Position numbers and translations under genes: made by a program | Source: Herbidospora yilanensis | Lineage (GTDB): Bacteria; Actinomycetota; Actinomycetes; Streptosporangiales; Streptosporangiaceae | DNA: 64,000 bases | Direction: 5' to 3' | Assembly (NCBI RefSeq): GCF_001570565.1 | Contig: NZ_BBXE01000013.1 | Coordinates: forward strand, 824,984-888,983 | Shown: piece after piece, positions 11,591-21,651 of the stretch | How positions within the stretch are numbered: position 1 is the stretch's first letter | Layout of the letters: each line of letters begins with the position of its first letter | Notes under the pieces: generated by a model | Database searches by the model: none | What the model was told of the DNA's origin: nothing | The model's input: only the letters and a program-made list of their open reading frames with translations

Positions 11591-12856
11591 ATGGGGTTGG
11601 CGCAAAGAAGGGTGTGCCGGTTGTCGAACAACCAAGAACCCACGATTCCGCCGCCCGAAAACGTATTTCCGGCAAACCTCGACGTCGCGGAATTGCTGGC
11701 CACGGGCTGGCGGCCGTCCGCTTTTCGGCAGTTCATCTTGAAGGTGCACAGCCGATGCGATCTCGCGTGTCCGAGTTGCTACGTGTATGAAATGGCCGAC
11801 CAGGGTTGGCGCAGTCAGCCGCGCCAAATGTCGCCGGCCATCGTGGCGCGCACCGCTCTCCGTATAGCCGAACACGCCCGCGCCCACCGGCTGGCCGATA
11901 TCGACGTCATCCTGCACGGAGGGGAACCGCTTCTGGCCGGGCCGGAATCGCTCGGCCACATCGTGCGAACGATTCGCGGGGCGTGCGCCGAGGTGGGCAC
12001 CCGCGTGCGGGTCAGCGTGCAGACCAACGCCGTCCGGCTCGACGAGACCTTCCTGCGTCTCTTCAACGACCTGGAGATACGCGTCGGGGTCAGCCTCGAC
12101 GGCGACGCCGTGGCCCATGACCGGACCCGCGTCTTCGCGAACGGCCGGGGCAGTCATGAACACGTCAGCCGTGCGCTGCGCCTGTTCGAAGGGCCCTTTC
12201 ATCATTTGTTCGCCGGGCTTCTGTGCACCATCGACCTGCGCAACGACCCCGTCTCGACATACCGCGCATTGCTGGAATTCGATCCGCCGGGCGTCGATTT
12301 CCTGCTCCCGCACGGCAACTGGGCGGCGCCGCCGCCCTGGCGCGATCCCGATTCGGCCGCGACGCCTTATGCCGATTGGCTCATCCGCGTTTTCGACGAG
12401 TGGCGGGAGGCGTCGAGCTTTCGTACCGAGATCAGGCTCTTCCACGAGATCAACCGGCTGCTTTTCAAAGCTCCGTCGCGCAGTGAATCGGTCGGGTTGT
12501 CGCCGTCGTCGATGGTCGTGGTCGAGACCAACGGCGCCATCGAACAGTCGGACATCCTCAAATCGGCGTTCGAGGGCGCCTCGGCCACCGGCCTCCATGT
12601 GCTGACCGCCGCCTTCGACGACGCCCTGCGACACCCCGCCATCGTGGCCAGGCAACTGGGTGACCGGGCTCTCGGCCCCGAATGCCACCGATGCGACCTG
12701 ATGCGGATCTGCGGTGGCGGCCTGTACGCCCACCGATACCGCCCGGCCACCGGGTTCCGCAGCCCTTCGGTGTACTGCCCCGACCTCTACCGGCTGATCT
12801 CGTACATCAGCGATCGGCACGCCCGTGACACCGCCCGATTGAAGGGACGCGTATGA
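11591..12856 (+). CDS. fxsB: FxsB-type radical SAM/SPASM cyclophane-forming peptide maturase
   Basis: A 421-residue enzyme. The radical SAM 4Fe-4S motif is C56-x3-C60-x2-C63 within KVHSRCDLACPSCYVYE, followed by HGGEPLL and VGVSLDGD. A SPASM-like C-terminal region carries C365, C368, C374 and C396 in a CGGGLYAHRYRPATGF context typical of the FxsB family. FxsB enzymes install three-residue cyclophane crosslinks at the C-terminus of FxSxx-type precursors. Its stop overlaps the start of the HExxH gene (ATGA). A GGG-containing box precedes ATG 11591; GTG 11612 or TTG 11621 are possible alternatives. The best precursor candidate lies at 16,794, not next door. Confidence 0.88.
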   Translation: MGLAQRRVCRLSNNQEPTIPPPENVFPANLDVAELLATGWRPSAFRQFILKVHSRCDLACPSCYVYEMADQGWRSQPRQMSPAIVARTALRIAEHARAHRLADIDVILHGGEPLLAGPESLGHIVRTIRGACAEVGTRVRVSVQTNAVRLDETFLRLFNDLEIRVGVSLDGDAVAHDRTRVFANGRGSHEHVSRALRLFEGPFHHLFAGLLCTIDLRNDPVSTYRALLEFDPPGVDFLLPHGNWAAPPPWRDPDSAATPYADWLIRVFDEWREASSFRTEIRLFHEINRLLFKAPSRSESVGLSPSSMVVVETNGAIEQSDILKSAFEGASATGLHVLTAAFDDALRHPAIVARQLGDRALGPECHRCDLMRICGGGLYAHRYRPATGFRSPSVYCPDLYRLISYISDRHARDTARLKGRV

Positions 12857-14124
12857 ACACGGTCTCCGACAAGGCCTTCCGCGCCCTGGCCGAGGAACCC
12901 GCCAACGCGGAAGCGGCCGAGGAGCTCAACGGTCTCCAGGTCCGCCGCCGGCTGGGCCTGCTCCGGGGCGTCGCCGAGGAATCCCGGGTGTCCGGCCACC
13001 CCGACGCCGATTTGGCCGGCGAGGCCTACACGGCGCTGCTCGAACTGGAGGCCGCCGCCCCCGCCTCGGTGAACCCGGTCCTCCAGCACCCCGCCGTCGG
13101 GGCCTGGGCCTGGCGGACCTTCCGTTCCCTTCGGGTACGCGGCCCCGAACGCCCCGCCCGCCTTGGTGCGATCGCCGTGGCGGCAGCCGTCGCATCGGGC
13201 ACGCCCTGCCGGGTCAAAGCGCTGCTCGACGACGACGGCGGGCTGATGTTGCCCGGCCTCGGACGCTTGAGCCCCGGCGGAACCTGCGGAGAGATCGAGG
13301 TCGAGGGACACTCCCTGCGGGCCGGAGACTGGAGTGCCGAGCTGGACCTGACGGCCGACGCCCCCGGCTGGCAGGTGCTGCACCGGATCGTGATCGGCGA
13401 CGGCTTCTCCGTCGTGCTGGACGACCTCGACCCCCATCGCTGGCCGGAGCCCGGCCGGGTGACGCCCCGGCTCGCCCCTGGCGCGCTGCCCGTCTGGCGA
13501 TCCCTGCTCCCGGAGGCCTGGCACGTCCTGCGGGCGAACCACACAGGCGTCGCCGACGAGATCGTCACGATCGTGCGGGCCCTCACTCCGATCACGGCGC
13601 CGCCGGAGGGCGTGAGCAGCGCCTCGGCGCGGGAGACGTTCGGCACGATCGCCATGTCCGCGCCGACGGGCTCCCCGTCCTGGCTCGCGGAGACGTTCGC
13701 CCACGAGATCCAGCACGCCAAACTCGACGCCCTCATGCACCTGGTCCCGCTGGTCCGATACGAGAAGACCGAGACCTACTACGCCCCGTGGCGCCCCGAC
13801 CCCCGCCCCGCCCACGGCCTGCTCCAGGGCGCCTACGCCTACCTGGGCGTGACCGAGTTCTGGCAGCGCCAGCATCCGCATGAGGGCCTGCGTGGCCGCG
13901 TGGAGCTCGCCCGCTGGCGGGAGGGGGTCCGGCGCGTCCTCGACACTCTTGAGGACGAGCACCTCCTGAACGACGCGGGGATGACCTTCGTCGACGGCAT
14001 GCGCACCCGGCTGGGAACGGTGCTGGCCGAGCCGCTCGACGGGGAGGCCCTGGCCGCCGCCCAGAAGGCGGCGGCCGACCACCGGGCCGCGTGGGAGGCG
14101 CGGAACGGGATCTCAGATCGGTAG
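12853..14124 (+). CDS. HExxH-motif peptide-modification enzyme (putative peptide beta-hydroxylase)
   Basis: A 423-residue protein with the motif H284-E-I-Q-H288 in AETFAHEIQHAK and a likely third ligand near H321 (PAHGLLQG). This is the pattern of the HEXXH peptide-modification family found next to, or fused to, FxsB. Some members are described as alpha-ketoglutarate-dependent peptide beta-hydroxylases, so the motif would hold iron rather than zinc. The N-terminal 200 residues are helical and then beta-rich, probably for peptide recognition. It is translationally coupled to fxsB. Its 3' end overlaps the convergent fxsT-like gene by 12 bases. Confidence 0.8.
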   Translation: MNTVSDKAFRALAEEPANAEAAEELNGLQVRRRLGLLRGVAEESRVSGHPDADLAGEAYTALLELEAAAPASVNPVLQHPAVGAWAWRTFRSLRVRGPERPARLGAIAVAAAVASGTPCRVKALLDDDGGLMLPGLGRLSPGGTCGEIEVEGHSLRAGDWSAELDLTADAPGWQVLHRIVIGDGFSVVLDDLDPHRWPEPGRVTPRLAPGALPVWRSLLPEAWHVLRANHTGVADEIVTIVRALTPITAPPEGVSSASARETFGTIAMSAPTGSPSWLAETFAHEIQHAKLDALMHLVPLVRYEKTETYYAPWRPDPRPAHGLLQGAYAYLGVTEFWQRQHPHEGLRGRVELARWREGVRRVLDTLEDEHLLNDAGMTFVDGMRTRLGTVLAEPLDGEALAAAQKAAADHRAAWEARNGISDR

Positions 14125-16641
14125 CGGGTCGAAGTCGCAGTCGATCCTGACGCCCGATGCGGCGGTCACCGCGTCGGGCTGGCCCTGCTCGAACCGCTCC
14201 TGGTAGAGGTCCGCCACTTCGATCCTCAGCTTGTCCGCGTCGGGAGCCTCTGTCGCGATCCGGTCCAGGACCAGGTTGGCCGCGCACGACAGGGTCAGGA
14301 AGTGGTCGCGCCCGAACCGCTCCGTGAGGTGTTCGAGTGTGCCCTCACCCAGTGCTCTGGCCTGCTCGGACTCACCCAGGGCGGCCAGGTCGCTGGCCAG
14401 GTTCACCATGCACGACAACACGTAGTGGTGTTCCGGGCCCAGCCGGGCGGTCAGCCCCTCGCGGGCGGCCTCGTTGACGTCGCGGGCCTTCCGGGGATCG
14501 CCGAGCAGGCGGTGCAGAATGCCCAGGTTGGTCTGGCAGGCGAGCGTGAACGGATGGTCGCCGCCGAAGACCGACGGGTAGGCCCGGTTCATCTCCTCCG
14601 CCAGTTCGTACGCCTCAGCGAGATCGCCGCGGACCCGCAGAGCGTTGGAGACGTTCACGGCCGCCGCGATCGTGTCGGGGTGACGGGGGCCGAACAGCCG
14701 GGCCAGCCGGGCGTGGGTGTCTCTGGCGATGGAGATGGCCTGGTCGAGGGCGCCCGCCCGGCGCTGGGCGATCGACAGGTCCTTGGCGGTGATCAGCGTG
14801 GCCCAGTGGTCGCGGCCCAGCTTCAGGACGCCGAACGCCAGCGCGTCCTCACCGGTGTCGCAGGCCTCCTCGAAGCCGCTCGTGAGCCGGACGGCCCTGG
14901 CCATGCTGTTGCGCGAGAGCAGCACGATCTCCGAGCTGGCCGGGTTGGCCGCCTCGCTCTGGGCCAGATAGACCTCCGTGTGCAGCCGCCTGGCCCGTTC
15001 GTACTGGCTGTTGAGGCCGAAGTCGAGGGCGAGGCTGTTCTTGGCCCGCAGGGTGAGGACGTGGTCGTCGCCGAGCAGCCGCTCATGCTGTCTGACCGAC
15101 TCCTCGTCGAGTTCGAGTGCCTCCCGGAAGTCACCGCGGGCCCGCATGCTGCCGCCGAGACCGTTCCTCGCGATCAGCGTCTCCTCGTGTTCCGGGCCGA
15201 ATTCGTTGATCACATTCGCCAGGGTGGTGCGGTCGAGGTCGTACACCTGGGCGTACTCGCCCATGCGGCGCAACGTGTTCCCCTGGTGGCGGCGGGCCCG
15301 GAGCACGTCGGGGTGGTTCTCCCGCGCTCTGCCCCACTCGTCGATGGAGGCGGTGACCAGCTCCAGCGCCGACCGGTAGTTGCCCGAGGAGTAGAGGTAG
15401 CGCACGACGTTCAGAGCGAACTCGCGGACGCTGGGCTCACGTGATTCGAGAAGCCGTGAAGGGCGGACATGGGGCACCAGGTCGGCGAAGTCCGGCCACT
15501 TGGAGTTGTCGTCCGGAAGTTGCGGCGCGCTGCCGGCGAGAAGGCGGTGCACCTCTTCGCGCTGCCGGTCCTGGCGGGCCTCGTCGAGGTCGTCGCGCAA
15601 CAGCGCCTGAATCAGCCGGTGCACCTGGATCGTGCGGTTGTCGGGGTCGCTCCGGATGAGAGCGTATCGGCTGAGCTCTTTCACGGACTTGTCGAACATG
15701 ATCGGGTCGGCCAGCAGTTTCTCGAGACTCGGCGCGTTGGCCTTGTTCCCGCGCCGGAAAACGTCGAGCGGAATGGGATCGGGCCCGAAGAAAGCGCAAC
15801 AGCGCAGCAGGTTGAGCGCGATCTCCAGCCGTTCTTCCAGCAGCGAGACCGAGACTCGCCAGGCGGCGGTCATCGTCAGCGGATAGTCTCTGGCTCTTTC
15901 CGCGCCCAGCAGCCGGGCCGTCTGTTTGTCGAGCAGCTCGATGTAGTCGTCGACCGTCATGGTGCCGCGCCGCTGCAACGCGCCGACCTGTTCCAGGGCC
16001 AGGGGCAGGTCACCCAATTTGTCGGCCAGCCGGAACGCCTCGTCTTTGGTGATCCGCGCGCCCAGCCTTTTCGTCAGGAACTCGATGCTCTCGTCCCTGG
16101 TGAACACGTCCACCTGGAGGGATCGGAATTGGTCGTCCCAATTCGGGTTGCGTGACGTGATGATCACATGGCCGGGGCCGCGCGGAATGAACCTCTCGAT
16201 GCGGGCGTCTTCCGCGTTGTCGAAAATCAACAGCCAGTTGTTGTACGGCGCCCCGTTCTCCAGCGCCTCCCGCACGGACTCGGCCGCCTCCTCCACACCC
16301 ACGACAGAGGCAGGAGTCAATTTGAGATGGGGCGCCAATGCGGCCAGCGCCGAGGGCACCAGATAGTACTGGTCCGCGGGAATCCACCAGACCAGGTCAT
16401 AGTGAGAGCGATAGCGGTGGGCGTACTCGATCGCCAGGTGGGTCTTGCCGACGCCGCCGTAACCCTGCAGAGCCTGCGGCAACGGGATGACGGCGGTCAC
16501 CGACCGGGTGCCCTCACGCAGCTGGTGCAGCAGGCTCTCCCGCCCGGTGAAGCTGCCGTTTCTGGGCGGAACCCGCTCGAAGATCTCCGGCTGTTTGTCT
16601 CCCAGGGAATGTGCGGCGAGCGAGGAGGATTCGGTGCCCAT
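14113..16641 (-). CDS. FxsT-type NB-ARC/TPR protein of FxSxx-like system
   Basis: An 842-residue STAND protein. It has a P-loop GYGGVGKTHL (about residues 60-69), a Walker-B-like LLIFDNAED, the sensor VIITSRNPNW and GDLPLALEQVGAL, which define an NB-ARC ATPase. A winged-helix part follows, then about eight TPR repeats (GNTLRRMGEY, NGLGGSMRARGDF and similar). It ends GVRIDCDFDPLPI, close to the tail I recall for FxSxx-system TPR proteins. ATG 16641 has GGAGG four bases upstream and is preferred over 16704. It is divergent from the precursor-like ORF at 16,794, so both may be controlled from one intergenic region. Confidence 0.82.
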   Translation of the reverse strand: MGTESSSLAAHSLGDKQPEIFERVPPRNGSFTGRESLLHQLREGTRSVTAVIPLPQALQGYGGVGKTHLAIEYAHRYRSHYDLVWWIPADQYYLVPSALAALAPHLKLTPASVVGVEEAAESVREALENGAPYNNWLLIFDNAEDARIERFIPRGPGHVIITSRNPNWDDQFRSLQVDVFTRDESIEFLTKRLGARITKDEAFRLADKLGDLPLALEQVGALQRRGTMTVDDYIELLDKQTARLLGAERARDYPLTMTAAWRVSVSLLEERLEIALNLLRCCAFFGPDPIPLDVFRRGNKANAPSLEKLLADPIMFDKSVKELSRYALIRSDPDNRTIQVHRLIQALLRDDLDEARQDRQREEVHRLLAGSAPQLPDDNSKWPDFADLVPHVRPSRLLESREPSVREFALNVVRYLYSSGNYRSALELVTASIDEWGRARENHPDVLRARRHQGNTLRRMGEYAQVYDLDRTTLANVINEFGPEHEETLIARNGLGGSMRARGDFREALELDEESVRQHERLLGDDHVLTLRAKNSLALDFGLNSQYERARRLHTEVYLAQSEAANPASSEIVLLSRNSMARAVRLTSGFEEACDTGEDALAFGVLKLGRDHWATLITAKDLSIAQRRAGALDQAISIARDTHARLARLFGPRHPDTIAAAVNVSNALRVRGDLAEAYELAEEMNRAYPSVFGGDHPFTLACQTNLGILHRLLGDPRKARDVNEAAREGLTARLGPEHHYVLSCMVNLASDLAALGESEQARALGEGTLEHLTERFGRDHFLTLSCAANLVLDRIATEAPDADKLRIEVADLYQERFEQGQPDAVTAASGVRIDCDFDPLPI

Positions 16642-16754
16642 CGGACCTCCGCTGCTTCGATGAAGAGATGACTTGCTTCTTGCCACGCCCTGTTCAAAAC
16701 TCATCTAAACAGCAACGCTCGTCAATGTCGCCCAGGCCGTGAAAGGCGGCCAAC

Positions 16755-16760
16755 CATAAT
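16755..16760 (+). promoter_or_regulatory. Putative -10 for the precursor-like ORF
   Basis: CATAAT differs from the consensus by one base and lies 33 bases before ATG 16794 in a locally A/T-rich stretch. No convincing -35 is seen, so an activator could be needed. Confidence 0.35.
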
Positions 16761-16793
16761 TCTCTTATCGGCTGACGCTGAAGGCGAGGATTC

Positions 16794-16934
16794 ATGATCG
16801 ATGCTGAACGCGGTTCCGGCGAACCGCTCCTGAACTCGATCGGCGAAGTTCCCTACTCGACCCTGCGTGGGCTGCTGGAACACTTCGTCGAACAGCCCGC
16901 GACGACGAGTTCGGGGTTCCAGAACTTCATCTGA
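16794..16934 (+). CDS. Candidate FxsA-like RiPP precursor, 46 residues, C-terminus FQNFI
   Basis: A short ORF starting ATG 16794 with GGCGAGG four bases upstream. The leader (LLNSIGEVPYSTLRGLLEHFVEQ) resembles the short amphipathic leaders of FxSxx-COOH precursors. A flexible PATTSSG linker is followed by the terminal five residues F42-Q-N-F-I46. Canonical FxsA ends F-x-S-x-x; here Ser is replaced by Asn, so the crosslink would be Phe42 to Asn44. Other three-residue cyclophane enzymes are known to accept Asn at this position. It lies 150 bases from the divergent fxsT-like gene and 3.9 kb after fxsB. It could still be a chance ORF. Confidence 0.65.
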   Translation: MIDAERGSGEPLLNSIGEVPYSTLRGLLEHFVEQPATTSSGFQNFI

Positions 16935-17081
16935 TCGAAACGGCGGGAGGGTCGTGAGCCAATGATGATCCGCGCCCTCCCGGCCACCTGCCGGAGAAAC
17001 CGAAAAAACGACACCGGCCATCTCAGCGCGACTGCCTCTACAGTCGGAACCGGATATCGGGCCGAAGAGGTGGAGCCGTGC

Positions 17082-17978
17082 ATGGGCGGAATGAGCAAAA
17101 AAGATTGGGAGCGGCTCATTTACCAATTGAGGACCGGCCACTGCACCCCTTTCGTGGGCGCCGGCGCCTCGATGAGCGTCCTCCCGTCAGGCCGCCGGCT
17201 CAGTAAGACCCTCGCGGCCAAGTGTGACTATCCCGGCCCGGAGACGAGCGAACTGCCGCGTGTCGCCCAATATGCCAGCTTCGAATACGGCGATCTGAGC
17301 CACGTCAAATACCTGGTCCGCGATGAGCTGACCAAAGACGACCGGACCCCTGATTTCAGCGACCAGAACGAGCCCCACGCGGTGCTGGCCGATTTCCCCC
17401 TGCCGGTCTACCTCACCACCAACTACGACGATTTCATCGTCCAGGCGCTGGCGACCCGCAGGAAGGCGGCCAGAGCGGCCGTCTGCCCGTGGAACGAGGC
17501 CATCGCCCCCGACCCGCTGTTCAAGGACGCGGAGGGCTGGAACCCGAGCCCGCAGACCCCGCTCGTCTACCACCTCCACGGCGCGATGCGCGACCCGGCC
17601 ACCTTCGTGCTGGCCGAGGACGACTACATGATGTTCCTGCGCAATCTCGCCATCGAACGCAAGATCGGCGGCAACCGCATGTTCCCCCCGTCGATCCTGG
17701 CGGCGCTGACCACCCGCCCGTTGCTCTTCATCGGATACAGCCTTCAGGACTGGACGACCCGGGCCATGTTCGCGGAACTCGGCCGGTCGATCCCCGCGCT
17801 CAGCAGGCGCCGCCACGTGAGCGTTCAGCTCGCCCCCGGTGACGCCTCGGGCTGGACGGTCGAAGACCTGGAGCGTCAACTGTCCTGGTACTACCGCGAA
17901 TGGCAGATCACGGTCTACTGGGGCGGCATCGAGGACTTCTGCACCGAATTGCGTGATCGGATGGGAGCCATGTCGTGA
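17082..17978 (+). CDS. SIR2-like domain protein, putative NAD-directed effector
   Basis: A 298-residue protein of the SIR2-like superfamily. Visible motifs are PFVGAGASMSVLPSGR (NAD-binding glycine loop), YLTTNYDDFI with the conserved Asn-Tyr-Asp, VYHLHGAMRDP with the catalytic-type His, and LLFIGYSLQDW. This form is common in anti-phage SIR2 proteins that cleave NAD+. No zinc-ribbon cysteines of deacetylase sirtuins are present. ATG 17082 has GGTGGAG six bases upstream; the frame is open to 16962. Its stop overlaps the next gene start (GTGA), so the two products are made together. Confidence 0.82.
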   Translation: MGGMSKKDWERLIYQLRTGHCTPFVGAGASMSVLPSGRRLSKTLAAKCDYPGPETSELPRVAQYASFEYGDLSHVKYLVRDELTKDDRTPDFSDQNEPHAVLADFPLPVYLTTNYDDFIVQALATRRKAARAAVCPWNEAIAPDPLFKDAEGWNPSPQTPLVYHLHGAMRDPATFVLAEDDYMMFLRNLAIERKIGGNRMFPPSILAALTTRPLLFIGYSLQDWTTRAMFAELGRSIPALSRRRHVSVQLAPGDASGWTVEDLERQLSWYYREWQITVYWGGIEDFCTELRDRMGAMS

Positions 17979-20005
17979 CCGGGCCAGTTCCGACTCTCGA
18001 ACCCTACGTCGGCCCGCGCGCCTTCCTCCGCCAGGACAGCGGCAAGTTCTTCGGCCGGGAACGCGAAGCCCACGAGGTCTGCGACCTGTGGCGATCGAAC
18101 CAGATCACGGTCCTGTACGGCCCCTCCGGCGCGGGCAAGACCTCCTTGATCAACGCGGGCGTCATGCCCCTGCTCGACCCGTCGCAGAACGACATCCTGC
18201 CGGTGGGGCGGGTCTCCTACACCTCGGCGGTGCCCTCCGCCGCGCTGCCCGAACACAACCCGCACACCTATGCGCTGCTGTCGTCGTGGTCGCCGGGAGA
18301 GAGCCCGTCGCTGCTGGCCGGACTCACCCTGAGGCGGTTCTTCAGCCGCCGGCCGATGAGGCAGGACCCTTATGGCGACCCGGTGCTCCGTCTGGCGGCG
18401 ATCGACCAGGCCGAGGAACTGTTCCTGGGGAACAACCGCCGCGCGCCGTACCACGAGTGGTTCGTCGACCAGCTCGTCGAAGCCCTCCGCATGGACCTGG
18501 ACCTGCGCGTGCTGATCTCGATCAGAGACGACCAAGTCGCCGCCGTGCTGCGGAGCGACCGCCTGCAGGACGTCCAGACCCGGGGCCGCTTCGCCTTGGG
18601 CGCCCTCGAACCCCCCGCCGCCACCCAGGCCGTCGTGGGCCCGTTGACCGGCACCGGCTACTCCTTCGACGACGACGCCGCGCAGCAGTTGGTCGACGAC
18701 CTGAGCGGCAGCCGGGACACCCAGCCGGAGTCGAAGGCGATCGATCCCGTCCAGCTCCAGGTCGTGTGCACGGCCCTGTGGAAGGCGCTGCCTCCGGACG
18801 TCACCCGCATCACCACGCACCACATCGTCCGGTATGCCGACGTGCGCCGGTCCCTGGAGCGATACGTCGACCAGACGATCGCCGAGGTCGCCCTCGACCA
18901 CCTCGACGGCGACACCGCCCGCCTGCGCGCCTGGCTCCGCGCCAACTTCGTCGCGGGCAACGCCAAGACCCCGGTCTACCGGGGCGAGACCCTGACCGCC
19001 GGGATGCCGAACGAGGTGGTCGCCGCCCTGGTCGACCACCACGTCCTGACCCCGCGGCCCGACGTCACCGGCGACGCGGCCCAGTGGTACGAACTGTCAC
19101 ACGAGAGCCTCGTCCGCCTCATCCGCGAAGAGGCCGACGATGTGCCCGCCGACCACCGGTCTTCTGAGCAGTTCCTCGAATCCGCCCAGCACGCCCTGCG
19201 TGAGGGCGATTTCCCACGTGCCCGCCGTCACGCCAACGCCGCGCTCGCCCTGACCGATTCCTCCCGGCTCAGGGCCGAGATCGAGTCGTTCCTCGGCAAC
19301 GTCGCCTTCGCCGACGCCCGATACGACACAGCGATCGACCACTACCGCGAGGCGGCCGCGCTCTTCGACGTCCACGGCCGCAAGGTGAGCGTAGGCCGCT
19401 TGCTGGCGGCCAGCGGCAGAGCCCTCCGCGCCCTCGGCGAAACACGGCGCGCGATCCACGACCTGAAATCCGCCATCGATCGGGTCCCCGACGATCAGGG
19501 GATCCGGGTCGAACTCGCGTGGACCTATTGGGACGCGGATCATGCCAACTTCGCGCTCGAAACGCTCGACTCCGTTCTCGACGACGACGCCAACTCCTGG
19601 CCCGCCCTGCGCGCCCGGGCGGAGATCCTCCTCCACGCGGGCAAGCCCACCGAGGCGCTGCGAGACTTCGCCCGAATCCAACCGATAAGAGAGCCATGGA
19701 TCAGGGCCGCCTACGCGTATGCCCTGGCCCAGCACGGCCAACTGCCCGAAGCGATGGAGGAGATCACCGCCCTGCGCGCGACCACGGCGGGACACGGTCC
19801 CGTTCTCCTCTATGCGGCCCTCATCGAGAAACTGGCCGGACGAGCCGCGCCGGCAGGTCGCCTCGCCGCATCGGCGAGAGCGGCCAGGGCACCGCTGATG
19901 CCCGCGGCCCTCGACCATGTCGCCGCCCGGCTGATCTCCGAAGACCATGGACACGATCATCGTGAACGGGATGATGAGGGCGCTCCGCCACCCGACGTCC
20001 CTTAG
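17975..20005 (+). CDS. nSTAND1 ATPase with C-terminal TPR repeats
   Basis: A 676-residue protein. It begins EPYVGPRAFLRQDSGKFFGRE, the typical entry of the nSTAND1 family, then P-loop YGPSGAGKTSLINAG (about residues 48-62) and a Walker-B-like AAIDQAEELF. A winged-helix region with ELSHESLVRLI follows near residue 370. From about residue 385 the protein is helical repeats of TPR type (SAQHALREGDF, GRALRALGETRRAI). This is the sensor/oligomerisation architecture of STAND conflict proteins. It is coupled to the SIR2-like gene, which would act as its effector. Its stop overlaps the convergent MFS gene. Confidence 0.82.
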   Translation: MTGPVPTLEPYVGPRAFLRQDSGKFFGREREAHEVCDLWRSNQITVLYGPSGAGKTSLINAGVMPLLDPSQNDILPVGRVSYTSAVPSAALPEHNPHTYALLSSWSPGESPSLLAGLTLRRFFSRRPMRQDPYGDPVLRLAAIDQAEELFLGNNRRAPYHEWFVDQLVEALRMDLDLRVLISIRDDQVAAVLRSDRLQDVQTRGRFALGALEPPAATQAVVGPLTGTGYSFDDDAAQQLVDDLSGSRDTQPESKAIDPVQLQVVCTALWKALPPDVTRITTHHIVRYADVRRSLERYVDQTIAEVALDHLDGDTARLRAWLRANFVAGNAKTPVYRGETLTAGMPNEVVAALVDHHVLTPRPDVTGDAAQWYELSHESLVRLIREEADDVPADHRSSEQFLESAQHALREGDFPRARRHANAALALTDSSRLRAEIESFLGNVAFADARYDTAIDHYREAAALFDVHGRKVSVGRLLAASGRALRALGETRRAIHDLKSAIDRVPDDQGIRVELAWTYWDADHANFALETLDSVLDDDANSWPALRARAEILLHAGKPTEALRDFARIQPIREPWIRAAYAYALAQHGQLPEAMEEITALRATTAGHGPVLLYAALIEKLAGRAAPAGRLAASARAARAPLMPAALDHVAARLISEDHGHDHRERDDEGAPPPDVP

Positions 20006-21651
20006 CCGGCCACGCTTCCGGCCTGCTTGACACTCGGTGCGGCGCCTCGCCAATCACCTTGAAGCGCGTGGACATCCGCACCTATCTCAGCAGGCCACAG
20101 GAAGCGTCGAGGGGCGTCGAGCGGTTCCGTGCGAAACGTGCGTTCCTGGCCGATGTCGCCCAGTCGTGGGCCCTTGGCCCGATAGGCCGCCGCCGCGAAG
20201 CGGAACACGAAGTCATGCCGGTCACCTCCGTCTCGGCAGTACATGGGCCAGCGGTCCTGGGTGAGGTGCGGATCGAGGAACCGGGCAGTCATCCCGGAAC
20301 GGTCGTTCTGACCGAACACGCGGAGCAGACGGCCGCGTCCGCCCAGCCCCCGCGCATGGCGGAGACCGTGGATCCCGTGATCGCCGGTCATCTCGCTGTT
20401 CAACCAGACGATCCACATGACGATGAGCCCGCCGATGACGGCGAACCCGTAGGCGAGCAGGTGCGCGGCGCCCTCGACACCGTAAACGGTCACCAGCACA
20501 CCGCCCAGCGGCGCCGCCGCCGTGACCGCCGTGTGGCCCAGCAGCCGGGACACACTGGCCACCCGGGCCCGTTTCTGACGGACGACGAAGGCGCCCTCAT
20601 AACGCCGCATGGCGATATTGGTGGCCGTACCCCACCCGGTCAACAACAGGCCCAGGGCGAAGGAGACCGGATGGGGATAGCAGGTGATGGCGAACATCGC
20701 GACCGCCACCATCACGACCTGCGTGTGCAGCACCCAGGTCTCCGGCCGGATGCGACGGGCGACGATCGTGCCGAGCGTCCCCCCGAGACCACCGAACGCC
20801 AGGTACACCCCGACCTCGGTGACCCCCAGAATCGGCACGTACCCGGCGATGAAGACAACGATCAGAACGTTGACCATGAAGTTCGTCGTCGTCGTCAGAA
20901 TGACCGCGACCAGCAGGAACGGGTGCCGGTTGAGTTCACGCAATCCCTCGGCGATGGAGACCCACATCGACTCCTGCTCCGCTGACCTGCGGGGCCGGAC
21001 CACCCGGGGCCGTGGCACGGTCAAGGCCGATACGAGCGCGAAAGCCGGCGCGATGAGGAAAGGGGCGGCACTGTGCCACGCGTAGAGGCACCCTGCGAGA
21101 GGACGGGCGATCAATGAGCCGATCTGCGTGCTCCGCTCACTCGACGCCAGAAAGAGAGTGAGCTTGGCAGGCCCCCGGACCAGGGAGGGGATGAGCGCGG
21201 ATTCGGCGAGGGAGTAGGCGATCCACATGGTGCCTTCGAGGAAGGCCGCAGCCAGGATGATCGGAAGGGTCAATTGACCTGCTATGAGCAGGAACCCCAC
21301 AAAAAGCAATGTAAGTAGTCGAACAACCTCAACCCTTCTCATAAGCTGAGAAGGGTCCTGCCGGTCGATCATCGCACCAAAAGGAAGATAAAACAGGAAA
21401 CCGGGCAGGCTCAGCATAAAGCTCGCCCACCCGACCGCCATGCCCGAACCCGAGTGGTCGAACGCGAGCACCGGATACGTCAGGCTCATCGTCCGCGCAA
21501 CGGCCGTGGTACCAGTGAGACCCACCCAAAAGCGCCGCATCGACCACCGTGGATCCACCGCGCTAACCACCCTTCGGTTCAGCCCGCGGATGGCCACCAG
21601 AATGCGCGAGGCGATCCCTTCGAATCGCAGGCAGAGCAGGACCCGGGACAC
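20002..21651 (-). CDS. MFS transporter with unusual C-terminal tail
   Basis: A 549-residue protein. Residues ~35-420 form about 12 transmembrane helices of the EntS-like MFS group (GLTGTTAVARTMSL, LPFGAMIDRQDPSQLMRR with the loop-2/3 motif, LLLTGWGTATNIAMRR). After the last helix an extra ~125-residue hydrophilic tail (from TGDHGIHGL to KQAGSVAG) has no family match that I can recall and low-complexity composition. GTG 21651 has AGGCAGGGAG upstream. It could export the modified peptide of the neighbouring system, but this is only an inference from position. Codon use and A/T content around 21,250-21,420 differ from core genes. Confidence 0.72.
   Translation of the reverse strand: MSRVLLCLRFEGIASRILVAIRGLNRRVVSAVDPRWSMRRFWVGLTGTTAVARTMSLTYPVLAFDHSGSGMAVGWASFMLSLPGFLFYLPFGAMIDRQDPSQLMRRVEVVRLLTLLFVGFLLIAGQLTLPIILAAAFLEGTMWIAYSLAESALIPSLVRGPAKLTLFLASSERSTQIGSLIARPLAGCLYAWHSAAPFLIAPAFALVSALTVPRPRVVRPRRSAEQESMWVSIAEGLRELNRHPFLLVAVILTTTTNFMVNVLIVVFIAGYVPILGVTEVGVYLAFGGLGGTLGTIVARRIRPETWVLHTQVVMVAVAMFAITCYPHPVSFALGLLLTGWGTATNIAMRRYEGAFVVRQKRARVASVSRLLGHTAVTAAAPLGGVLVTVYGVEGAAHLLAYGFAVIGGLIVMWIVWLNSEMTGDHGIHGLRHARGLGGRGRLLRVFGQNDRSGMTARFLDPHLTQDRWPMYCRDGGDRHDFVFRFAAAAYRAKGPRLGDIGQERTFRTEPLDAPRRFLWPAEIGADVHALQGDWRGAAPSVKQAGSVAG

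What the first reader, a model, noticed from the sequence alone, without database searches (positions are those of the whole stretch)
16794..16934. Overlooked FxSxx-like RiPP precursor with a FQNFI terminus, distant from its maturase
A 46-codon ORF, too short for a usual gene call, has a good ribosome site, an FxsA-like leader and a C-terminal Phe-Gln-Asn-Phe-Ile. Canonical FxsA peptides end Phe-x-Ser-x-x. The maturase (FxsB), hydroxylase and FxsT proteins lie within 5 kb, and no other precursor was found beside fxsB. It would be an FxNxx variant with a Phe-Asn cyclophane, possibly beta-hydroxylated.
Basis: partly seen in the sequence, partly recalled or inferred. Interest (0 to 1): 0.92.

Follow-up and report, generated by a model that had tools for sequence, protein, structure and literature searches.

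The report
FxNxx-type FxsA cyclophane-peptide precursor gene
A tiny, conserved gene in a soil actinomycete encodes a peptide whose last five residues (Phe-Gln-Asn-Phe-Ile) look like a variant substrate for a neighbouring ring-forming enzyme, inside a cassette shared by many relatives that usually also carries two immune-type ATPases and often a SIR2 enzyme.

Summary
The 46-codon ORF at 16794-16934(+) is real and ends FQNFI. It occurs in 6 of 7 genomes of its genus (own included; Herbidospora), always ending FQNF[I/M], and in one further family genome as FTNFI. It is under purifying selection. It sits in the usual precursor slot of a recurrent cassette: fxsB, HExxH hydroxylase, fxsT reversed, [fxsA], optional SIR2, nSTAND1-TPR, often MFS reversed. 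So "distant from its maturase" is the normal layout: 51 of 55 such cassettes have a homologous ORF there, 33 with a strict F-x-[SNQA]-x-x-COOH end; controls with any strict frame: 2 of 55 opposite strand, 25 of 1100 random. Asn at core position 3 is not unique: in 77 assigned precursors it is S 39, N 22, A 8, Q 7, D 1, with N/not-N changing at least 7 times on the FxsB tree. NCBI's FxSxx model misses FQNFI. Best reading: an FxsA-type RiPP precursor (FxNxx variant) matured to a C-terminal Phe-Asn cyclophane, possibly beta-hydroxylated, its product probably acting on the cassette's TPR-STAND ATPases. Chemistry and function are inferred. New variant of a known kind.

The parts
16794..16934 (+). 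fxsA-like precursor ORF, 46 codons, ends SSGFQNFI
   Evidence: alignments
16917..16931 (+). core codons F42-Q43-N44-F45-I46; predicted C-C cross-link from F42 to C-beta of N44
   Evidence: conserved as F-[QT]-N-F-[IM] in this clade; cross-link inferred from PMC11002830
16783..16789 (+). ribosome-binding-site-like GGCGAGG, 4 nt before the ATG
   Evidence: unchanged in 4 of 5 aligned loci
16944..16982 (+). hairpin behind fxsA (8-bp perfect arms CGGGAGGG/CCCTCCCG), possible terminator or attenuator
   Evidence: z -1.71, 12 of 200 shuffles fold as well; right arm absent in 1 of 5 aligned loci
11591..12856 (+). fxsB: radical SAM/SPASM cyclophane-forming maturase, CxxxCxxC and SPASM cysteines present
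   Evidence: TIGR04269 459.7 bits; ChlB 9gm3 E 3.2e-66; sequence
12853..14124 (+). stand-alone aKG-HExxH-type peptide beta-hydroxylase, HEIQH present
   Evidence: TIGR04267 150.7 bits; ChlH 8s5f E 8e-9 and 22nu E 3.6e-40
14113..16704 (-). fxsT: NB-ARC ATPase, DUF7779, TPR repeats; divergent from fxsA
   Evidence: NF040586 951 bits; Pfam
17082..17978 (+). SIR2-like protein (GAGAS, TTNYD, HLHG present); the longest ORF starts at 16962 but the likely start is the ATG at 17082 behind GAGGTGGAG
   Evidence: PF13289; ThsA-like; start
17975..20005 (+). nSTAND1 NTPase with TPR repeats
   Evidence: PF20703 130 bits; homologue in 55 of 55 cassettes, which were picked by having SIR2 or nSTAND
20002..21651 (-). 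MFS transporter at the far end of the cassette
   Evidence: PF07690; homologue in 28 of 43 cassettes with at least 5.5 kb of flank

Best explanation
The ORF is fxsA of a six- or seven-gene cassette and encodes an FxsA-type RiPP precursor of FxNxx kind. The leader (EVPYxxLRGLL region) presents the C-terminal FQNFI to FxsB, which abstracts a C-beta hydrogen of Asn44 and joins that carbon to the ring of Phe42, giving a C-terminal three-residue cyclophane (-2 Da). The neighbouring aKG-HExxH enzyme then probably adds a beta-hydroxyl in or near the ring (+16 Da). The free-carboxylate cyclophane peptide most likely acts inside the producer as a ligand of the TPR-bearing STAND ATPases of the cassette (FxsT and nSTAND1-TPR), which in this genome may also control a SIR2 NADase-like effector; the MFS protein may export it. 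Shown here: the gene, its conservation, homology to FxsA, position, intact enzyme motifs. Inferred from family knowledge: cross-link and hydroxylation. Inferred from gene linkage alone: the target.
For: Conserved ORF and C-terminus. A homologue in the same slot in 51 of 55 cassettes, 33 with a strict motif (the profile was seeded from some of these same gaps, and 13 of the 55 are from the window's genus); controls for any strict frame 2 of 55 and 25 of 1100. A bridging precursor (G033) carries both the canonical FxsA leader block and PYSSLRG...FQNSI and finds this ORF at E 2e-7. The third position is S, N, A, Q or D in 77 of 77 assigned precursors, never G, P, T, V or I, whereas 90 of 276 short ORFs with F at -5 have one of those: what a cross-link at an unbranched C-beta predicts. 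Characterised relatives: MscB (IPR026335) joins Phe C4 to Ser C-beta; XncB and OscB join Phe C4 to Asn C-beta (PMC11002830, passages). An FxsB-related system's HExxH enzyme hydroxylates C-beta of Asp and His of a cyclophane peptide (PMC12636437, passages). In the 19 kb fetched from G006, one fxsB/hydroxylase pair lies beside two fxsT-fxsA-SIR2-nSTAND units (FQNFM and FQNFI), so the precursor travels with the ATPases. nSTAND or SIR2 lies beside 51 of the 57 fxsT-fxsA pairs found.
Against: No product was seen. The leader is diverged: TIGR04268 gives no match, a profile without Herbidospora FQNF and without the bridge reaches only E 0.029, and one of all 13 Ser-type seeds ranks the ORF fourth at E 2.7. 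6 of 57 fxsT-fxsA pairs have neither nSTAND nor SIR2 beside them, and SIR2 is found in only 30 of 55 cassettes, so neither is essential everywhere. 4 of 55 cassettes have no homologue in the slot; in G005 a unit keeps its ATPases without a precursor. The hydroxylase is absent beside 8 of 22 Asn rows, so hydroxylation is not a fixed partner of FxN.
Confidence: 0.7

Rival explanations
1. The ORF is a relic FxsA: homologous to FxSxx precursors but no longer cross-linked because Ser became Asn; the unmodified peptide acts by itself or is useless.
For: TIGR04268 does not recognise it. One unit in G005 lacks the gene.
Against: Core FQNF[I/M] in seven copies of six genomes, the window's included, with purifying selection; FxsB and HExxH motifs intact; Asn changed at least 7 times on the FxsB tree; no FxsB core column separates Asn from Ser clades, so the enzyme seems tolerant; Phe-Asn links are made by sister enzymes (PMC11002830).
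Confidence: 0.1
2. A leader peptide or uORF that controls the SIR2-nSTAND operon by attenuation; the peptide sequence matters only in cis.
For: A hairpin follows the stop codon and SIR2 starts about 150 nt later.
Against: Selection is on amino acids, with the last eight residues nearly invariant; homologous peptides keep the F-x-[SNQA] core while spacing and hairpin vary; the hairpin arm is missing in one close relative and its fold z-score is only -1.71.
Confidence: 0.05
3. A genuine modified peptide that is exported as an antibiotic or hormone, with FxsT, SIR2 and nSTAND serving regulation or self-protection.
For: MFS gene in 28 of 43 cassettes with enough flank; 6 of 57 fxsT-fxsA pairs do without nSTAND and SIR2.
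Against: MFS was not found in 15 of those 43; FxsT and, in 51 of 57 pairs, nSTAND or SIR2 are the steadier neighbours, and they look cytosolic.
Confidence: 0.27

Closest known systems
FxSxx-COOH precursor family (NCBIfam TIGR04268) with FxsB maturase (TIGR04269; MscB of IPR026335)
   Same: Short leader, C-terminal F-x-X-x-hydrophobic-COOH, encoded near FxsB, HExxH enzyme and FxsT.
   Different: Asn instead of Ser at the third core position, leader block of LIDVSxLSL type missing, no TIGR04268 match.
Triceptides of XncB and OscB (Phe C4 to Asn C-beta cyclophanes; PMC11002830, passages)
   Same: Predicted identical Phe-x-Asn ring.
   Different: Different radical SAM enzymes and precursors; here the ring lies two residues from a free C-terminus.
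ChlB/ChlH and fused radical SAM-HExxH systems (PMC12636437, passages; Morishita 2024, cited there, not read)
   Same: FxsB relative plus HExxH hydroxylase.
   Different: Hydroxylase is a separate gene here; the residue it would modify is unknown.
FxSxx peptide-processing systems coupled to AP-ATPases (Kaur et al. 2020, PMC7159879, section 24 read)
   Same: Radical SAM, HExxH protein, small precursor, AP-ATPase-TPR; peptide proposed as toxin or signal.
   Different: The main text has no 'SIR2' (source data not seen) and takes the HExxH protein for a peptidase; here nSTAND1-TPR and often SIR2 and MFS are linked.

Membership tests
FxSxx-COOH (TIGR04268) | Score over the curated cut-off (28 bits) | tested here: not met
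   0 families for the ORF at E<=10; no match over cut-off in its genome, though only 150 of 548 candidates were scored
FxSxx-COOH (TIGR04268) | C-terminal F-x-S-x-x | tested here: not met
   FQNFI. A Nonomuraea FSNSI precursor is nevertheless just over the cut-off (28.3 bits)
FxsA-type precursor (broad sense) | Homologous leader and same genomic slot as FxSxx precursors | tested here: met
   E 0.029 without bridge, 0.00018 with it, but E 2.7 (rank 4) with all 13 Ser-type seeds only; slot
FxsB (TIGR04269) | Score over cut-off and radical SAM/SPASM cysteines | tested here: met
   459.7 vs 370 bits; motifs by eye
aKG-HExxH peptide beta-hydroxylase (TIGR04267) | Score over cut-off and HExxH | tested here: met
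   150.7 vs 40 bits; HEIQH
Triceptide (three-residue cyclophane) | C-C bond between the ring of residue i and C-beta of i+2 in the product | not testable with these tools
   needs expression and LC-MS/NMR
Thoeris ThsA | SIR2 plus C-terminal SLOG domain, partner ThsB | tested here: not met
   only a SIR2 match, residues 51-276 of 338; the SLOG/ThsB part of the definition is recalled, and ThsB was not searched for

The most novel reading that the evidence does not exclude
The mature C-terminal cyclophane peptide is an intracellular alarm or antidote ligand read by the TPR domains of two STAND ATPases and so gates a SIR2 NADase: a RiPP-controlled immune or suicide switch in which the third core residue (Ser, Asn, Gln, Ala, Asp) diversifies as a self-specificity code between paralogous cassettes of one cell (here FQNFI, FQSSY and FQASI).
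Probability: 0.2. Interest if true: 0.88.

Novelty: new variant of a known kind. Interest (0 to 1): 0.52.

Why it matters
It extends predicted FxsB substrates beyond FxS and gives a natural series (Ser, Asn, Gln, Ala, Asp; His for Phe) matched to related enzymes, useful for learning what FxsB tolerates. It supplies the substrate of a recurrent cassette and ties a predicted cyclophane RiPP to STAND ATPases and often a SIR2 enzyme, which makes the open question of what FxSxx peptides do directly testable.

Tried and rejected
TIGR04268 search of the own genome gave nothing over cut-off, but only 150 of 548 candidates were scored, so absence was not concluded from it.

A link between absence of the hydroxylase and Asn: 8 of 22 Asn rows lack it vs 2 of 39 Ser rows, but on the tree only 5 independent pairs are usable on starred branches and the sign test gives 0.25-1: not claimed.

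FxsB residues that track Asn vs Ser: none in the aligned core (the columns listed there are terminal gap columns or differ in the window's clade only).

Promoter scan: no sigma-70-like site in 16600-17150; one terminator-like site on the minus strand, about what shuffles give. The extraction and the alignment mixed strands and were discarded; replace them. The hydroxylase flag in the tally misses genes that overlap fxsT; searches are used for it. Among the 33 strict frames one (L113) is an unrelated frame and one homologue (L097, second cassette) was cut off by the gap's end; the recount on homologues also gives 33 of 55.

PADLOC: no model for FxsT, the hydroxylase or MFS; FxsB matches viperin weakly (1.4e-6, the radical SAM domain), nSTAND weakly mad3/LmuB/mad8, SIR2 resembles ThsA. 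Papers: two searches for SIR2/STAND/RiPP links listed nothing that I recognised as this cassette (listings only; PMC8195603 was searched for passages).

Full report
Observation. Translation of 16794-16934(+) gives 46 residues ending SSGFQNFI, with GGCGAGG four bases before the ATG. The neighbours are as described: FxsB (TIGR04269, 459.7 bits against a cut-off of 370), a HExxH hydroxylase (TIGR04267, 150.7 against 40) and FxsT (NF040586, 951 against 300). The motifs are present by eye: CxxxCxxC and SPASM cysteines in FxsB, HEIQH in the hydroxylase, GAGAS, TTNYD and HLHG in SIR2.

Conservation. The window lies in a 7.85-Mb genome. Counting the window's own, the ORF occurs as seven copies in 6 of 7 genus genomes (two in G006, none found in G004), all ending FQNFI or FQNFM. 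A profile of these seven over 297 family genomes finds 8 with a match: those six, and two of a second genus, whose ORFs end FTNFI (G110) and FQNSIEVAP (G033); both lie beside fxsT, SIR2, nSTAND and MFS homologues. Substitutions are mostly conservative of the protein: dN/dS is 0.14-0.47 in the 18 of 21 pairs where it could be computed over the last 36 codons; the other three had saturated synonymous sites.

Cassette. From 80 loci with FxsB relatives (131 were found, the best 80 kept), stretches of five genus genomes and the own genome's C30 loci, the recurrent order is fxsB, hydroxylase, fxsT reversed, a short ORF, SIR2, nSTAND1-TPR, MFS reversed. I counted 55 cassettes in which SIR2 or nSTAND follows fxsT within 1.5 kb; three duplicate stretches were dropped first, the window itself was not counted, and 13 of the 55 are from its genus. 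51 of 55 hold a homologue of the short ORF in the slot, 33 of them ending F-x-[SNQA]-x-x-COOH; this profile was seeded from 29 precursors, most of them taken from these gaps. The unseeded control is the raw count of strict frames: 33 of 55 gaps, against 2 of 55 on the opposite strand and 25 of 1100 random stretches of the same lengths. Four cassettes have no homologue in the slot: L084, the second unit of L037, and L129 and L135, which have one upstream of fxsB instead. nSTAND is found in 55 of 55, which is partly by construction, SIR2 in 30 of 55, MFS in 28 of 43 with enough flank. Outside these, 6 of 34 other fxsT genes have an fxsA homologue in the divergent slot without SIR2 or nSTAND beside it. 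The loci are related, so counts are not independent events.

Homology to FxsA. A profile from 24 precursors without any Herbidospora FQNF sequence ranks this ORF first of 1083 open frames of the window but only at E 0.029; a Ser-only profile without Herbidospora ranks it first at E 0.072; a Ser-only profile with all 13 Ser seeds ranks it fourth at E 2.7. The G033 precursor bridges the gap: it has the canonical-looking IDLSDLPL block, then ELPYSSLRG, then AGFQNSI. It finds the ORF at E 2e-7 and lifts the profile to E 0.00018. The Herbidospora leader lacks the IDLSDLPL block.

Third core position. I assigned precursors to 77 of 88 FxsB rows from the listing. The position is S 39, N 22, A 8, Q 7, D 1; without the 6 weakest assignments it is S 37, N 22, Q 7, A 4, D 1 of 71. 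It changed at least 18 times on the FxsB tree, and N versus not-N at least 7 times (quick tree, SH-aLRT support only, 30 of 85 inner branches under 80). Glycine, proline, threonine, valine and isoleucine are absent (0 of 77; 90 of 276 short ORFs with Phe at -5 have one of them), as expected if the carbon joined is an unbranched C-beta; the assignments are by eye, so this is a lead rather than a test. No FxsB core column separates Asn from Ser clades. MscB, in the family entry IPR026335, is reported to link Phe C4 to Ser C-beta, and XncB and OscB to link Phe C4 to Asn C-beta (PMC11002830, passages); that IPR026335 is the FxsB family is recalled. A Phe-Asn cyclophane from an FxsB enzyme is therefore chemically ordinary; I met no report of one in the searches, which cover open-licence papers only.

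The other copies in this genome. C30 carries a complete paralogous cassette with a precursor ending FQSSY (FxsB 65% identical) and an FxsBH-type locus with a precursor-like ORF ending FQASI, a weak match (E 0.21).

What the peptide may do. In the 19 kb fetched from G006 a single fxsB/hydroxylase pair, with FxsB 69% identical to the window's, lies beside two fxsT-fxsA-SIR2-nSTAND units, one with FQNFM and one with FQNFI; in G005 two units are present but only one has fxsA. The precursor thus moves with the ATPases rather than with the enzyme. With nSTAND or SIR2 beside 51 of 57 fxsT-fxsA pairs and TPR repeats in FxsT and nSTAND, I consider a peptide ligand read by TPR domains the likeliest role. 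Kaur et al. 2020 proposed a toxin or signal for FxSxx peptides beside AP-ATPases (PMC7159879, section 24 read). SIR2 resembles ThsA and KomC NADases but was not found in 25 of 55 cassettes, so it can only be one of several outputs. This part rests on linkage alone.

Verdict. Observation confirmed; interpretation supported with corrections on position and uniqueness. It should not be filed as a TIGR04268 member (model and F-x-S-x-x feature both not met), but as an FxsA-type precursor of FxNxx kind. My probabilities: real precursor of the linked FxsB 0.9; Phe-Asn cyclophane 0.75; beta-hydroxylated 0.5; ligand of the cassette's STAND ATPases 0.35.

Noticed in passing
L102:15463-15669 and L104:15462-15668 (Streptosporangium): FxsA-like precursors ending AGHQSSV: His replaces the ring Phe, suggesting a His-Ser cyclophane by an FxsB enzyme.
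   Followed up: no
L107, L116-L118 (FSQSIDG or FNQSIDG...), L103, L106, L109 (FDNSTPP...), L108, L114 (FTSYT...), L153 (FQNSIEVAP): FxsA homologues with residues beyond the pentapeptide, so the motif is not always at the C-terminus.
   Followed up: no
L037:11688-17266: Second fxsT-SIR2-nSTAND unit in G005 without an fxsA; the gap is only 166 nt.
   Followed up: partly
L069:9158-9328(-) and L068:14146-14289(+): The own genome has two further precursor-like ORFs near other fxsB genes, ending FQASI and FQSSY; NCBIfam matches the first only below cut-off and the second not at all.
   Followed up: partly
L092:18451-19852: An extra hydroxylase homologue followed by a second FxsA-like ORF ending FQSAY downstream of a cassette.
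   Followed up: no
window 16962-17082: The SIR2 gene probably starts at 17082, 40 codons inside the longest ORF.
   Followed up: partly
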